Source: Pelosinus propionicus DSM 13327
GTDB lineage: Bacteria; Bacillota; Negativicutes; DSM-13327
Length of the DNA: 64,000 nucleotides
Reading direction: 5' to 3'
Assembly: GCF_900114615.1 (NCBI RefSeq)
Contig: NZ_FOTS01000001.1
Coordinates: 144,345-208,344, forward strand
Positions within the stretch are counted from its first letter, which is position 1. Each line of letters opens with the position of its first letter. This document shows positions 36,091 to 44,469 of this stretch, in pieces. Position numbers and translations under genes: made by a program. A model generated the notes under the pieces. That model did no database searches, was not told the DNA's origin, and worked only from the letters and a program-made list of their open reading frames with translations.

Positions 36091-36549
36091 ATGTCTTTTT
36101 TTATGGCACTGGCGGTTTCTATTGTGAAAAGTCTTTCTGTGCTAGTTTCTTATGTAACCAATAATACGTTTCCCTTACCTCTTTCAGAAAAGGAAGAGCA
36201 GATACAGTTGGAGCGGCTGAAGAACGGTGATGAAAATGCTAAGAATGTATTAATTGAGCGGAACCTAAGATTGGTGGCCCATATTGTTAAAAAGTTTGAC
36301 AACACTGGTGAGGATACGGATGATTTAATTTCTATTGGTACAATTGGTCTAATAAAGGCAATCAATACGTTTGACGTTGCTAAAAAAATTCGTTTAGCGA
36401 CTTATGCAGCGCGATGTATTGAAAATGAAATATTAATGCATCTAAGAAGTACTCGGCGAACTCGTGCTGAAGTTAGTTTATATGATCCTATCGGCGTAGA
36501 TAAGGAAGGTAATGAATTAACGTGCTATATTTATCGGTATGAGATATAA
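36091..36549 (+). CDS. sigK: sigK, part 1 of 3: pro-sigma-K N-terminal segment
   Basis: Encodes the first 140 codons of pro-sigma-K (to 36510) plus the AAT-GAA crossover codons, then 11 read-in codons and a stop inside element 1. The pro-peptide MSFFMALAVSIVKSLSVLVS is followed by YVTNN; S20-Y21 aligns with the SpoIVFB cleavage point known in Bacillus. Region 2 follows: IERNLRLVAHIVKKF, DDLISIGTIGLIKAI, ATYAARCIENEILMHLR. The reading frame stays in register up to DPIGVDKEGNE. The ATG at 36091 lies nine bases after GGGGGTG; a GTG at 36079 overlaps that site. Regions 3 and 4 are missing here and are found at 41799 and 44404. Confidence 0.95.
   Translation: MSFFMALAVSIVKSLSVLVSYVTNNTFPLPLSEKEEQIQLERLKNGDENAKNVLIERNLRLVAHIVKKFDNTGEDTDDLISIGTIGLIKAINTFDVAKKIRLATYAARCIENEILMHLRSTRRTRAEVSLYDPIGVDKEGNELTCYIYRYEI
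36511..36516 (+). repeat. Left crossover repeat of element 1
   Basis: AATGAA in frame as Asn-Glu. The identical copy is at 41799-41804. The exact exchange point within the shared bases cannot be read from the sequence. Confidence 0.85.
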
Positions 36550-36560
36550 TCATTTGGTAA

Positions 36561-38114
36561 TCATTGAGGTAAACGGGGACGTAAGACCAATGTAAATGTG
36601 TCGCCTTTTTGCCATTTTTCTTTTCTGTATGTCGCATACTCTATGACTGATTTTAAAAATTTATTCTTTTCTGTAGGATCATTGGATTTTTCATAGATTT
36701 TTAAAACTTTTTCGATTTTAGGAATAATATCTCTTCTACTTTCTTCATGTAGTATTTCCTTAGACAATGCAAGTTCTGCTTTGTCTAATTTTTTTTGTGC
36801 AGCGTCAATTTTTTCGGAGAGCTTAATTAATCTTTCAAAATATGTAGCAGCGTTATAAATTTTTTTCTCTAAGAGGTTATGTAAGTTATCTTTTTGCTGC
36901 TCTAGTTCTTTTAGTTCTTTTTTGAGATTTTGGTGAGCTTTTTCTCTAGCATTAACAGTACTACGTTCTCCTTTTGGCATGAAGATTTCCCATTGAGCGC
37001 AATAGTCATCAAGCCATAGCTGTAAACCTTCAAGCAGTTTTTTCTCAACATATTCAAAACGGCAGCTTTTATTAAGACAATGCCTGTTGTAACACATTAA
37101 ATGTGGAAACTGCTGATGCTGATAAGGTCTATAAATCATAGAACCGCCACATATATCACATCTAATTAATCCGGCCAGCGGATTCGTGATCCCACTTAGC
37201 AACTGATAAGGTGGATGATATTTTCTGGACAACATATTCTGTACTTGCTCGAATTCTTCGAGAGTTATATATGGCTCATGGCAATCATATATCCAAATTT
37301 GTTCTTCCCTGGGGCGATGCCTAGTTTCTCTGCCAGTACGCGTAGTAGATTTCTTAGATGCTACTTTTTTCCAGGCGTTTACGCCAGCGTAAGCAGGGTT
37401 TTTTAAGATTGCTAAAACTGATGAGGCGGACCATTTCTTACCTGAATAAGATGGATATCCCATTTGATTTAATTCATTGGCGATCTTGTTTGTTCCCATA
37501 TTAAATTGATATGCTGTCCAGATTAAGTTTGTTGGTTCACGTTGTTCTGGATGCTTAATTAAGTATCTCTTATGATCTTTTTTCTCAACAAGGTATCCAT
37601 ATGGCGGAATTGCACCCAGATAATTTCCTTCTTCAAGTGAGCGAATTCGGCCGCCTTGTAAACGCCTGGTAATAATTTTTAACTCTTTGCGAGCCATAAA
37701 AGATTCAAACTCTGTATATTCTTCATCCCATTCATTATTTAAGTCATATATTTTGCGGGGGGTTATGATCTTAGTCTGTGCTTGCTTAAAGGTTTCTATA
37801 ATTAGACCTTGATCTTGCATTTTGCCGCGTCCAAGTCGATCGATGTCCATGCAAAAAACAGATTTCCATTTTCCTAATTCAATTTCTTTCAATAAATTTA
37901 ACATTTCAGGTCGATGAATGATGCTTTCTCCGGAGACAACTTCTTCAAATATTTTGGTGACGGTAATTCCATGCTCAGCAGCTATTTTAAATAAGGCTTT
38001 TTTGTGTTTGGCAAGTGTTTCTCCGTCTCCTTTTGTTTCTGCCTCTTGATCTTCTCTAGATTTGCGAAGATAAAAGCAAGAAGGCTCTAAATCTTTGTTA
38101 AGCTGATTGTTCAA
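36561..38114 (-). CDS. spoIVCA: Large serine recombinase of element 1 (SpoIVCA-like)
   Basis: A 517-residue large serine recombinase. The resolvase domain (about residues 10-160) has the catalytic serine in CFYLRKSREDQ and the conserved FCMDIDRLGRG. The Recombinase domain follows (about 190-300, IPPYGYLVEK ... NQMGYPSYSGKKWSASSVLAILKNPAYAG), then a zinc ribbon (CDICGGSMIYRP ... CYNRHC) and a C-terminal coiled coil (about 395-460). Its stop lies 45 bases inside the left end of element 1, reading toward sigK part 1. Gene position and the split sigma-K make it the likely enzyme that excises element 1 in the mother cell. The start is TTG after AGAAGGTGA. Confidence 0.92.
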   Translation of the reverse strand: MNNQLNKDLEPSCFYLRKSREDQEAETKGDGETLAKHKKALFKIAAEHGITVTKIFEEVVSGESIIHRPEMLNLLKEIELGKWKSVFCMDIDRLGRGKMQDQGLIIETFKQAQTKIITPRKIYDLNNEWDEEYTEFESFMARKELKIITRRLQGGRIRSLEEGNYLGAIPPYGYLVEKKDHKRYLIKHPEQREPTNLIWTAYQFNMGTNKIANELNQMGYPSYSGKKWSASSVLAILKNPAYAGVNAWKKVASKKSTTRTGRETRHRPREEQIWIYDCHEPYITLEEFEQVQNMLSRKYHPPYQLLSGITNPLAGLIRCDICGGSMIYRPYQHQQFPHLMCYNRHCLNKSCRFEYVEKKLLEGLQLWLDDYCAQWEIFMPKGERSTVNAREKAHQNLKKELKELEQQKDNLHNLLEKKIYNAATYFERLIKLSEKIDAAQKKLDKAELALSKEILHEESRRDIIPKIEKVLKIYEKSNDPTEKNKFLKSVIEYATYRKEKWQKGDTFTLVLRPRLPQ

Positions 38115-38374
38115 ATTATCACCTTCTTTTTGTTGCCATATGGCTGTTAATCAATCTTATAAACATATGGTATCTGATAGTAACCTAGAACAAAAATATA
38201 CTTATACTAGGAAGTTTTGCGTTAAGGCAGCAGTTTCTCTATGATTGTGTTGGCTTTTAGTCATTATTAAGAATTGTTTATTCTAAGGAATTCAATATAA
38301 TATGGTGTGAATGATGGTTTAATAGGGTCGTCCTTCGTAACTATCTTCATATATATAATCGAGGTGAAGATTCT
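38115..38374. other. Gap between recombinase 1 and the next gene
   Basis: This 260-base AT-rich stretch should hold the promoter of recombinase 1 (minus) and that of the small genes (plus). I see no clear sigma-E-type or housekeeping promoter that I would call. Confidence 0.4.
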
Positions 38375-38572
38375 ATGGAAGAAAAATATGATGCTACATA
38401 TTATCTGGAAAATACGATCGTTCATATTATTTCCCCCATTTATATGACAGAAGCAGAAAAAGAAAAGGTACTTTGTGAGTTTTATCGTCAAGCATGGAAT
38501 ATTTGGAACTTATTACCGGTTAAAGAGCGGCTTCGAATTAATAATGAGTATGATAGGAAGCAGTCGGTTTGA
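38375..38572 (+). CDS. Small unknown protein of element 1
   Basis: A 65-residue protein (MEEKYDATYYLENTIVHIIS...) with a middle amphipathic part (TEAEKEKVLCEFYRQAWNIW) and a basic end. GAGGTGAAG precedes the ATG. I do not recognise it. Size and place, next to the recombinase, leave open a role in recombination control. Confidence 0.5.
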   Translation: MEEKYDATYYLENTIVHIISPIYMTEAEKEKVLCEFYRQAWNIWNLLPVKERLRINNEYDRKQSV

Positions 38573-38697
38573 TGGATAGCTGATTACGCTAAATCATTTA
38601 AAGCAGTAGTAGCTGTATTAGAATTAGCGTGGCCTGCAGTACCAGATGAATAAAAGATTTCTTTATCGTCAACACTATTATAAAGGATGGTGTTTAT

Positions 38698-38886
38698 ATG
38701 CCTGAGGTAGAAGAAATTTTAAAAAAAGTTGAAGAATTAAGAGACAAATTAAATAAAGTGGCTCAAGAAAAAAATGAAAAACTTACAGATCCTAAGATCA
38801 TCGCTGTTAGTAGGGAGTTAGACAGTTTGCTTAATACATATCATAAACTAATGACAAATAAAATGATAAAGTTAAAAAAGCTCTAA
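38698..38886 (+). CDS. Spo0E-like aspartyl-phosphate phosphatase
   Basis: A 62-residue helical protein. The segment IIAVSRELDSLLNTYHKLM fits the Spo0E signature (SxELDxLIxxY), with the catalytic-type LD and the following Tyr; the family length is 50-85 residues. Spo0E proteins remove phosphate from Spo0A~P and so hold back entry into sporulation. It lies inside element 1, which should be lost from the mother cell. The N-terminal half (EEILKKVEELRDKLNKVAQE) forms the first helix of the pair. The start is ATG after AAGGATGG. Confidence 0.75.
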   Translation: MPEVEEILKKVEELRDKLNKVAQEKNEKLTDPKIIAVSRELDSLLNTYHKLMTNKMIKLKKL

Positions 38887-39040
38887 TTTGATTTTACTGA
38901 ATTTTTTATTTATTAAAGGAGAAAAAATATATTTGCCGAAATTACTAAAAAGAAGATTAAAACAGCAACTAAATAATAAAGTCATAGTGAGATGAATTTC
39001 ACATAAAATAAAGTAAAGAATTTTAGGGGGATAAGAGGAC

Positions 39041-44112: not shown

Positions 44113-44188
44113 ATAAAAGTTAAATTTTATATAGAATTGGCGCAATTGTTTTGTTACTTTCATAAGATATTACAAAGGAGATGATGAG

Positions 44189-44329
44189 ATGAGGAAGACA
44201 ACGAAACCGCCTCAGAAGACACATGATGTTTCTTCTAAACAGGGAGAGAAAGGCAAGACAAAGGCATCATGGCCAAGTTCCAAAGGAAATACAACCTCTT
44301 CGGCAGAATCTAGAGAATCTGAAAAATAA
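44189..44329 (+). CDS. Tiny Lys/Ser-rich protein of element 2
   Basis: A 46-residue, low-complexity, hydrophilic protein (MRKTTKPPQKTHDVSSKQGE...). AAAGGAGATGATG lies just before the ATG, and a terminator follows the stop, so it has gene-like surroundings. No hydrophobic core is visible, so it is likely unfolded or nucleic-acid binding. It is the last gene before the sigK end. Confidence 0.55.
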   Translation: MRKTTKPPQKTHDVSSKQGEKGKTKASWPSSKGNTTSSAESRESEK

Positions 44330-44333
44330 ATAA

Positions 44334-44368
44334 TAGGGCGACACCTTGGGGGTGCCGTCTTTTTTGTA
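44334..44368 (+). terminator. Terminator before sigK part 3
   Basis: GGGCGACACC pairs imperfectly with GGGTGCCGTC around a four-to-five base loop, followed by a T run (TTTTTTGT). Confidence 0.8.
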
Positions 44369-44403
44369 TTTGTATTTTTTACTAAAAATTTTTTATCATT
44401 TGC

Positions 44404-44420
44404 GTCTCGCGAATTGAGAA
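44404..44420 (+). repeat. Right direct repeat of element 2
   Basis: GTCTCGCGAATTGAGAA, the partner of 42012-42028. Confidence 0.92.
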
Positions 44421-44469
44421 GAAAGCCATTGGTAAATTGGGAAAAAGCCTATCGGCAGAGGATAGCTAA
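44404..44469 (+). CDS. sigK: sigK, part 3 of 3: sigma-K C-terminal end
   Basis: Only 21 codons and a stop: VSRIEKKAIGKLGKSLSAED-S. It has no start or ribosome binding site and is meaningless alone. It begins with the same 17 bases as 42012-42028, in the same frame (42012 minus 41799 is 213, a multiple of three). Adding 140 codons of part 1 and 71 of part 2 gives 232 residues, close to sigma-K of other spore formers. The basic tail after RIEK aligns with the RALMKMF-type end in Bacillus. Confidence 0.92.
   Translation, partial: VSRIEKKAIGKLGKSLSAEDS

What the first reader, a model, noticed from the sequence alone, without database searches (positions are those of the whole stretch)
36091..44469. 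sigma-K gene split into three pieces by two separate excisable elements
Part 1 (36091-36516), part 2 (41799-42028) and part 3 (44404-44469) are all in one frame when the sequence between each pair of direct repeats is removed. The join gives DKEGNE-ITLIDVL and SYVSRIEK-KAIGKLGK, both agreeing with sigma-K of other spore formers, and a 232-residue protein with an intact pro-peptide. Single skin elements in sigK are known from Bacillus, Clostridioides and others. I do not know of a described gene needing two independent excisions, each with its own large serine recombinase. Such a gene would put a two-key lock on late sporulation.
Basis: partly seen in the sequence, partly recalled or inferred. 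Interest (0 to 1): 0.95.

Follow-up and report, generated by a model that had tools for sequence, protein, structure and literature searches.

The report
sigK split by two predicted excisions
In this Pelosinus-type bacterium the gene for the late spore-forming switch protein sigma-K lies in three pieces separated by two DNA elements, each with its own intact recombinase gene, and both elements are predicted to be cut out during spore formation to rebuild the gene.

Summary
sigK lies in three parts (36091-36510, 41799-42011, 44404-44469) split by elements A (5,288 bp) and B (2,392 bp). Joined at the repeats AATGAA and GTCTCGCGAATTGAGAA, they give 232 codons scoring 353 bits to the sigma-K model (cut-off 299). 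No other full sigK was found in the genome. Pelosinus fermentans JBW45 (one contig) has the same layout; between the two, exon 3 has 5 synonymous and no amino-acid changes, and both recombinases are under purifying selection. In two relatives element B has decayed and the sigK end was rebuilt beside the wreck. In Negativicutes at least three sigK positions are used, each by its own recombinase clade. By my tally 8 of 31 genomes with sigK in pieces show evidence of double occupancy (A+B or C+A), on one contig in three; the last piece was not found in two. Excision itself is not shown. The need for B excision is inferred: the A-only product still passes the sigma-K model. Genes with several excisable elements are known in cyanobacteria; eight full-text searches gave none for sigK. 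Verdict: real, a new variant of the skin element.

The parts
36027..36059 (+). sigK promoter-like motif CAGGCACA-N16-CATACAATG (mother-cell sigma type by recalled consensus)
   Evidence: The motif or a close form is visible by eye in the 16 upstream stretches printed; not tested statistically
36091..36510 (+). sigK exon 1 (pro-sequence-like start to DKEG)
   Evidence: 29 synonymous / 1 non-synonymous differences to JBW45
36511..36538 (+). Site A left junction: core AATGAA (36511-36516) and right arm TTTATCGGT
36561..38114 (-). Recombinase A, large serine recombinase, 517 aa
   Evidence: Pfam Resolvase, Recombinase, Zn_ribbon_recom; dN/dS 0.11 to JBW45; site A clade
38375..38572 (+). A65, 65 aa, candidate directionality factor of element A, divergent from recombinase A; GTCC-N14-CATA motif just upstream (from 38330)
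   Evidence: Found in 20 of 24 site A elements, the other four held only in part; motif in 15 of 18 tested, post hoc. Function inferred
38698..38886 (+). Spo0E-like gene inside element A
   Evidence: PF09388, E 3.4e-13
39041..39388 (+). 115-aa protein of unknown function, conserved in Pelosinus
39600..40713 (+). Insertion-sequence transposase genes inside element A
   Evidence: PF13276, PF00665, PF13333 for 39835-40713; ORF 39600-39857 only
41144..41605 (+). OmpH/Skp-like protein inside element A
   Evidence: PF03938
41779..41804 (+). Site A right junction: arm ACAGATAA (41779-41786) and core AATGAA (41799-41804)
41799..42011 (+). sigK exon 2 up to the site B core
   Evidence: 16 synonymous / 0 non-synonymous to JBW45 over 75 codons
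42012..42052 (+). Site B left junction: core GTCTCGCGAATTGAGAA (42012-42028) and arm CTAATGACAAAAAA (42039-42052)
42029..42065 (+). Element-encoded tail HRMLMTKKLIT and stop that end sigma-K if B stays
   Evidence: 1.5 synonymous / 5.5 non-synonymous to JBW45 over 12 codons
42054..43514 (-). Recombinase B, large serine recombinase (ORF open to 43553; likely start 43514 or 43517)
   Evidence: Pfam; dN/dS 0.17 to JBW45; site B clade; start by alignment
43760..43927 (+). B55, 55 aa, candidate directionality factor of element B, divergent from recombinase B
   Evidence: Open in window, JBW45 and G005 C170; in-frame stop in the three decayed copies; sigma-E-like score above 200 shuffles in 2 of 3 species, not in the window's own copy. 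Function inferred
44189..44329 (+). 46-aa small ORF, function unknown
   Evidence: Conserved in JBW45 and G005 C170, and also in the decayed copies
44389..44420 (+). Site B right junction: arm TTTTTTATCATTTG (44389-44402) and core (44404-44420)
44404..44469 (+). sigK exon 3 (core plus KAIGKLGKSLSAEDS and stop)
   Evidence: 14 codons: 5 to 12 base and 0 amino-acid differences per pair among four genomes with site B occupied

Best explanation
sigK is interrupted by two independent skin-like elements, and two site-specific excisions, each predicted to be made by the element's own large serine recombinase, would rebuild the 232-codon pro-sigma-K gene in the mother cell. Shown directly: three pieces, repeats, intact recombinase genes, distinct att arms, conservation of all three pieces, no other sigK found. 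Inferred: that excision happens; that the small proteins A65 and B55 turn the recombinases from integration to excision; that excision is confined to the mother cell, so that the spore inherits the split gene. Without A excision the product ends at 152 codons (156 from the upstream GTG start) and lacks sigma region 4. Without B excision the end of the region 4.2 helix is replaced by an element-encoded tail, which is likely but not certainly inactive. As sites and enzymes differ, the order of the two cuts should not matter, and sigma-K would need both excisions plus removal of the pro-sequence.
For: Joined frame of 232 codons over the sigma-K cut-off. No second sigK found. 17-bp site B repeat, chance 0.01. 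Inverted att arms: site A left arm in 17 of 17 and right arm in 16 of 17 loci; site B arms. Recombinases of sites A (24), B (5) and C (4) each on one side of a branch, 0 of 500 shuffles. dN/dS 0.11 and 0.17; exon 3 five synonymous, no amino-acid change; 14 codons unchanged in protein over four genomes. Empty site B in relatives: UFO1 matches the IPA-1 third exon at 98% and its flank at 95%. Decayed B with rebuilt sigK end in G002 and G003. Same layout in one-contig JBW45.
Against: No read, circle or transcript data. The A-only product still scores 344.2 bits to TIGR02846, over the cut-off, and some relatives have other short sigma-K ends after RIEKRAIQK (G037, G050), so the last residues may be dispensable. 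The site A repeat alone is not significant. The generic sigma-E consensus shows no excess upstream of A65. B55 was found in only two of the four other genomes with an occupied site B (not in G006 or G074).
Confidence: 0.82

Rival explanations
1. Only element A must leave. Element B swaps the last 15 codons of sigma-K for an element-encoded tail, sigma-K works with either end, and B is a tolerated passenger or makes a second isoform.
For: The A-only product passes the sigma-K model (344 bits); sigma-K ends vary in G037 and G050.
Against: Exon 3 keeps its 14 residues over 5 to 12 base differences; the tails change fast (1.5 synonymous / 5.5 non-synonymous) and differ in each occupied genome; where recombinase B decayed, the true end was rebuilt.
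Confidence: 0.13
2. The gene is dead: sigK has been destroyed by insertions and the strain no longer completes sporulation.
For: No excision data exist here.
Against: dN/dS near 0.01 in exon 1 and no amino-acid changes in exons 2 and 3; recombinases open and under purifying selection; the layout is shared by several species; spoIIID is present.
Confidence: 0.03
3. Assembly artefact.
For: The window comes from a 134-contig draft.
Against: All parts lie inside one contig; the layout recurs in one-contig JBW45 and within one contig of IPA-1.
Confidence: 0.01

Closest known systems
skin elements in sigK (B. subtilis 48 kb, SpoIVCA and the 64-aa RDF Skr; C. difficile skinCd, CD1231 and RDF CD1234)
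   Same: Element inside sigK with its own large serine recombinase; in-frame rejoining at a short core; small protein candidate for directionality (PMC6957869 and PMC5025042, passages).
   Different: Two elements in one gene, at different positions and with unlike recombinases; excision not yet shown here. Whether A, B or C equals a known skin position was not tested; that site C is the B. subtilis position is recall.
Multi-element interrupted genes of heterocyst-forming cyanobacteria (nifD, nifH and others)
   Same: Several excisable elements in one gene; recombinases cluster by insertion position (PMC4874684, passages and results section part 1 of 2).
   Different: Other phylum, other terminal cell type, structural enzymes rather than the master sigma factor; half of those recombinases are tyrosine type.
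gin element in B. cereus gerE
   Same: Small non-prophage element in a mother-cell gene, excised in sporulation (excised element seen as a 2.1-kb band; PMC5595907, passages).
   Different: Another gene; the passages I saw describe a single element.
Prophages in sigK (Alicyclobacillus phage MMB025, C. perfringens phiS63)
   Same: Site B of IPA-1 holds a 48-kb prophage-like element, as in these sigK prophages (PMC13141910, passages).
   Different: There a single prophage; here a prophage stacked on a site A element in the same gene.

Membership tests
skin element (sigK-intervening element) | Element lies inside the sigK coding sequence and its removal restores the frame | tested here: met
   232-codon joined frame, 353 bits
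skin element (sigK-intervening element) | Carries its own site-specific recombinase with short direct repeats at the ends | tested here: met
   both elements
skin element (sigK-intervening element) | Cognate directionality factor | tested here: inconclusive
   A65 in 20 of 24 site A elements; B55 in three of five occupied site B genomes (window included); function not tested
skin element (sigK-intervening element) | Excision in the mother cell during sporulation | not testable with these tools
   No reads or cultures
multi-element interrupted gene (cyanobacterial type) | More than one element in one gene | tested here: met
   window, JBW45 and IPA-1 on one contig each
multi-element interrupted gene (cyanobacterial type) | Recombinases cluster by insertion position | tested here: met
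   Sites A, B and C each on one side of a branch, support 100/99 or better; two ungrouped rows, one of them inside the B branch
multi-element interrupted gene (cyanobacterial type) | Host is a heterocyst-forming cyanobacterium | tested here: not met
   Same genus group as Pelosinus
integration that restores the gene end (element carries a copy of the displaced 3' end) | Left junction encodes the normal gene end | tested here: not met
   The five tails after RIEK/RIE in occupied site B genomes are unlike KAIGKLGK

The most novel reading that the evidence does not exclude
sigK of spore-forming Negativicutes is a serial landing pad with at least three att sites, and stacked elements there act as an AND gate kept by selection: sigma-K appears only after two unlike recombinases have both cut in the mother cell and the pro-sequence has gone. 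Where a key is lost, the lineage keeps sporulating only by rebuilding the gene. The B-in and B-out forms may even be two sigma-K isoforms.
Probability: 0.22. Interest if true: 0.88.

Novelty: new variant of a known kind. Interest (0 to 1): 0.76.

Why it matters
Whether skin elements are selfish passengers or useful timers is still open. A master switch gene holding two unrelated elements, with close relatives that have one, two or a decayed one, gives ready natural comparisons. The three sites also supply large serine recombinases with mapped att sites and small candidate directionality factors that can be tested in E. coli.

Tried and rejected
Generic sigma-E consensus upstream of A65: no excess over shuffles. 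The GTCC-N14-CATA motif was seen there by eye and counted afterwards, so its 15 of 18 is post hoc (18 of the 20 A65 loci given, G010 and G138 left out). The A65 protein search returned 2 proteins from 2 candidates, so it says little about distribution. The phylum search with a 42-aa piece gave a capped list; I draw no count from it. Direct repeats around the recombinase next to spoIIR: no clear pair. Profile score as a test of the need for B excision: uninformative. Viral contigs with recombinase B relatives were fetched but not examined further. That site C equals the B. subtilis skin position is recall and was not tested.
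Full report
WHAT IS THERE. The window lies in a 5.41-Mb draft genome, contig C78, of the same genus group as Pelosinus fermentans JBW45 and Pelosinus sp. UFO1 and IPA-1 (names from record titles or from matching contig lengths). Exon 1 starts at 36091. The site A core AATGAA is at 36511-36516 and again at 41799-41804. The site B core GTCTCGCGAATTGAGAA is at 42012-42028 and again at 44404-44420. The stop codon ends at 44469. 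Element A is 5,288 bp and element B 2,392 bp. Joined, the frame is 232 codons and scores 353.4 bits to TIGR02846 against a cut-off of 298.65. Unjoined, exon 1 runs on to a short product ending ELTCYIYRYEI, and exon 2 runs into a tail HRMLMTKKLIT. No second complete sigK was found in the genome.

MORE THAN CHANCE. The 17-base site B repeat occurs twice in the window against a mean of 0.01 expected within two mismatches. The site A repeat is short and not significant alone. Its support is comparative: 18 site A loci with both ends held were given to the script, one (G066) was skipped by its pattern, and of the other 17 all have an ACAGATAA-like left arm within one mismatch and 16 have the inverted arm on the right. 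The intact counterparts of the sites are seen in one-piece sigK genes. For site B of the window the arms TTTTTTATCATTTG and CTAATGACAAAAAA are inverted copies, 12 of 14 bases by my reading. By symmetry of the arms the centre of both att sites would fall in a GA step; that is my inference.

ARE THE PIECES ALIVE. Against JBW45, Nei-Gojobori counts give exon 1 29 synonymous / 1 non-synonymous, exon 2 16/0, exon 3 5/0, recombinase A dN/dS 0.11, recombinase B 0.17, and the pre-excision tail 1.5/5.5. Over four genomes with site B occupied (window, JBW45, G005 contig C170, IPA-1) the 14 codons after the core differ by 5 to 12 bases per pair and by no amino acid. The dS of recombinase B (0.36) is close to that of exons 1 and 2 (0.38, 0.42), which suggests that B was present before the two lineages parted.

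RELATIVES. One search covered 300 genomes of the class. By my tally of its table, 21 have a one-piece sigK over the cut-off and 31 show it only in pieces (for some of these one piece only, at a contig end or with the rest not found). Of the other 248, G028 has a one-piece gene that lacks part of the DNA-binding helix region; the rest gave no sigma-K hit at E 1e-24 or only hits that I read as other sigma factors. Three positions recur: C near residue 115, A near residue 142, B near residue 217. Evidence for double occupancy: A+B in the window, JBW45, G005 (contigs C232 and C170), IPA-1 (A about 15 kb, B about 48 kb) and G074; C+A in G007, G039 and G046. That is 8 of 31. All pieces are on one contig only in the window, JBW45 and IPA-1; in G007 and G074 the last piece was not found. 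In G039 the middle exon is about 36 codons and sits directly between two recombinase genes (L139: recombinase C 4850-6634, exon 6627-6734, recombinase A 6757-8397).

DECAYED COPIES. In G002 and G003, and in contig C215 of the mixed bin G005, most of recombinase B is gone and B55 has an in-frame stop. The sigK end plus its near flank (about 150 bases matched) has been rebuilt directly after exon 2, in front of the wreck. In G002 and C215 the displaced old end is still present downstream; in G003 it is gone. Sporomusa ovata (G126) shows the like at site A: codons 110-231 are continuous, and a second 141-231 copy lies 4.6 kb on behind an att-like arm, while a site C recombinase lies just before the first. 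I read these as lineages in which a lost key was repaired by restoring the gene, perhaps from an empty allele; that route is inference.

WHICH RECOMBINASE WHERE. A tree of 35 recombinases puts the 24 site A, 5 site B and 4 site C enzymes each on one side of a branch (support 100/100, 100/99, 100/100; 0 of 500 shuffles as low). Two rows were in no group: one from G098, and one beside spoIIR in this genome, which falls inside the B branch. The nearest phage integrase to recombinase A is that of Thermoanaerobacterium phage THSA-485A at 50.5% identity; the joined ends of that record show inverted arms around GGAATGAGTT. Recombinase B has only distant phage relatives, 27-30% in the ten rows listed of 525 records. 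The 48-kb occupant of site B in IPA-1 carries terminase, head, tail sheath and tape measure genes and a second integrase-like gene (10 proteins scanned), so it looks like a prophage; its recombinase is 40% identical to recombinase B.

CONTROL GENES. A65 (65 aa), divergent from recombinase A in the window, is present in 20 of 24 site A elements; the other four were held only in part. Upstream of it 15 of 18 loci share GTCC-N14-CATA (shuffled mean 0.4, largest 3; post hoc), but the generic sigma-E consensus shows no excess. B55 takes the corresponding place in element B of the window, JBW45 and G005. In B. subtilis the skin RDF is 64 aa (PMC6957869, passages), and in C. difficile the RDF rather than the recombinase is the mother-cell-specific part (PMC5025042, passages). 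By analogy A65 and B55 are likely the directionality factors. The sigK promoter-like motif CAGGCACA-N16-CATACAATG, or a close form, is visible by eye in the 16 upstream stretches printed. SpoIIID is present, and three M50 proteins of 280-292 aa are candidates for the pro-sigma-K protease (not examined further).

MECHANISM. Most likely, in the mother cell each recombinase with its small partner excises its own element, the two joins restore sigK, pro-sigma-K is made and processed, and the spore keeps the split gene. Shown: sequence, conservation, distribution, decay with repair. Inferred: excision, cell type, RDFs, need for B excision. The weak point is B: without its excision the protein still looks like sigma-K to the profile (344 bits). 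Against that stand the conserved exon 3, the fast-changing tails and the repairs.

NOVELTY. Eight full-text searches on sigK or sporulation of the open PMC library gave no sigK or other sporulation gene with two elements in the listings and passages that I saw; no whole paper was read, and subscription papers and preprints were not covered. Multi-element genes are known in cyanobacteria (PMC4874684). So this is a new variant of the skin element, recurrent in Negativicutes, not a new kind.

Noticed in passing
L158-L165 (G321:C1:1542000-1641000; G513:C3:320000-409700): One full sigK followed by several 5'-truncated copies, most starting near residue 64 and keeping the rest of the gene: five or more downstream in G321 over about 90 kb, three or more in the stretches of G513 fetched. 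It looks like repeated insertions near codon 64 that each bring their own 3' part of the gene.
   Followed up: partly
L152:9389-11679 (own genome C34); recombinases near sigE also in L094, L099, L102, L106: A recombinase 42% identical to recombinase B lies directly downstream of a spoIIR-like gene after sigE and sigG. Whether it interrupts spoIIR is not settled; no clear direct repeats were found.
   Followed up: partly
38698-38886: Element A carries a Spo0E-like gene (PF09388), a family that includes negative regulators of sporulation onset. In UFO1 and IPA-1 a related gene lies just downstream of sigK instead.
   Followed up: no
L078:625-1254 (G028): A one-piece sigK that lacks about 23 residues of the DNA-binding helix region; broken gene or assembly collapse.
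   Followed up: no
L044, L136, L137, L147 (G006:C7:283090-331460): A 48-kb prophage-like element with a contractile-tail gene set sits in the last codons of sigK in Pelosinus sp. IPA-1.
   Followed up: partly
L086:1495-3000 (G098): After a sigK N-terminal piece that ends near site A lies a recombinase of none of the three clades, on the same strand as sigK; possibly a fourth kind of occupant.
   Followed up: no
39600-40713: An insertion sequence sits inside element A of this strain; element A still has an intact recombinase and A65.
   Followed up: no
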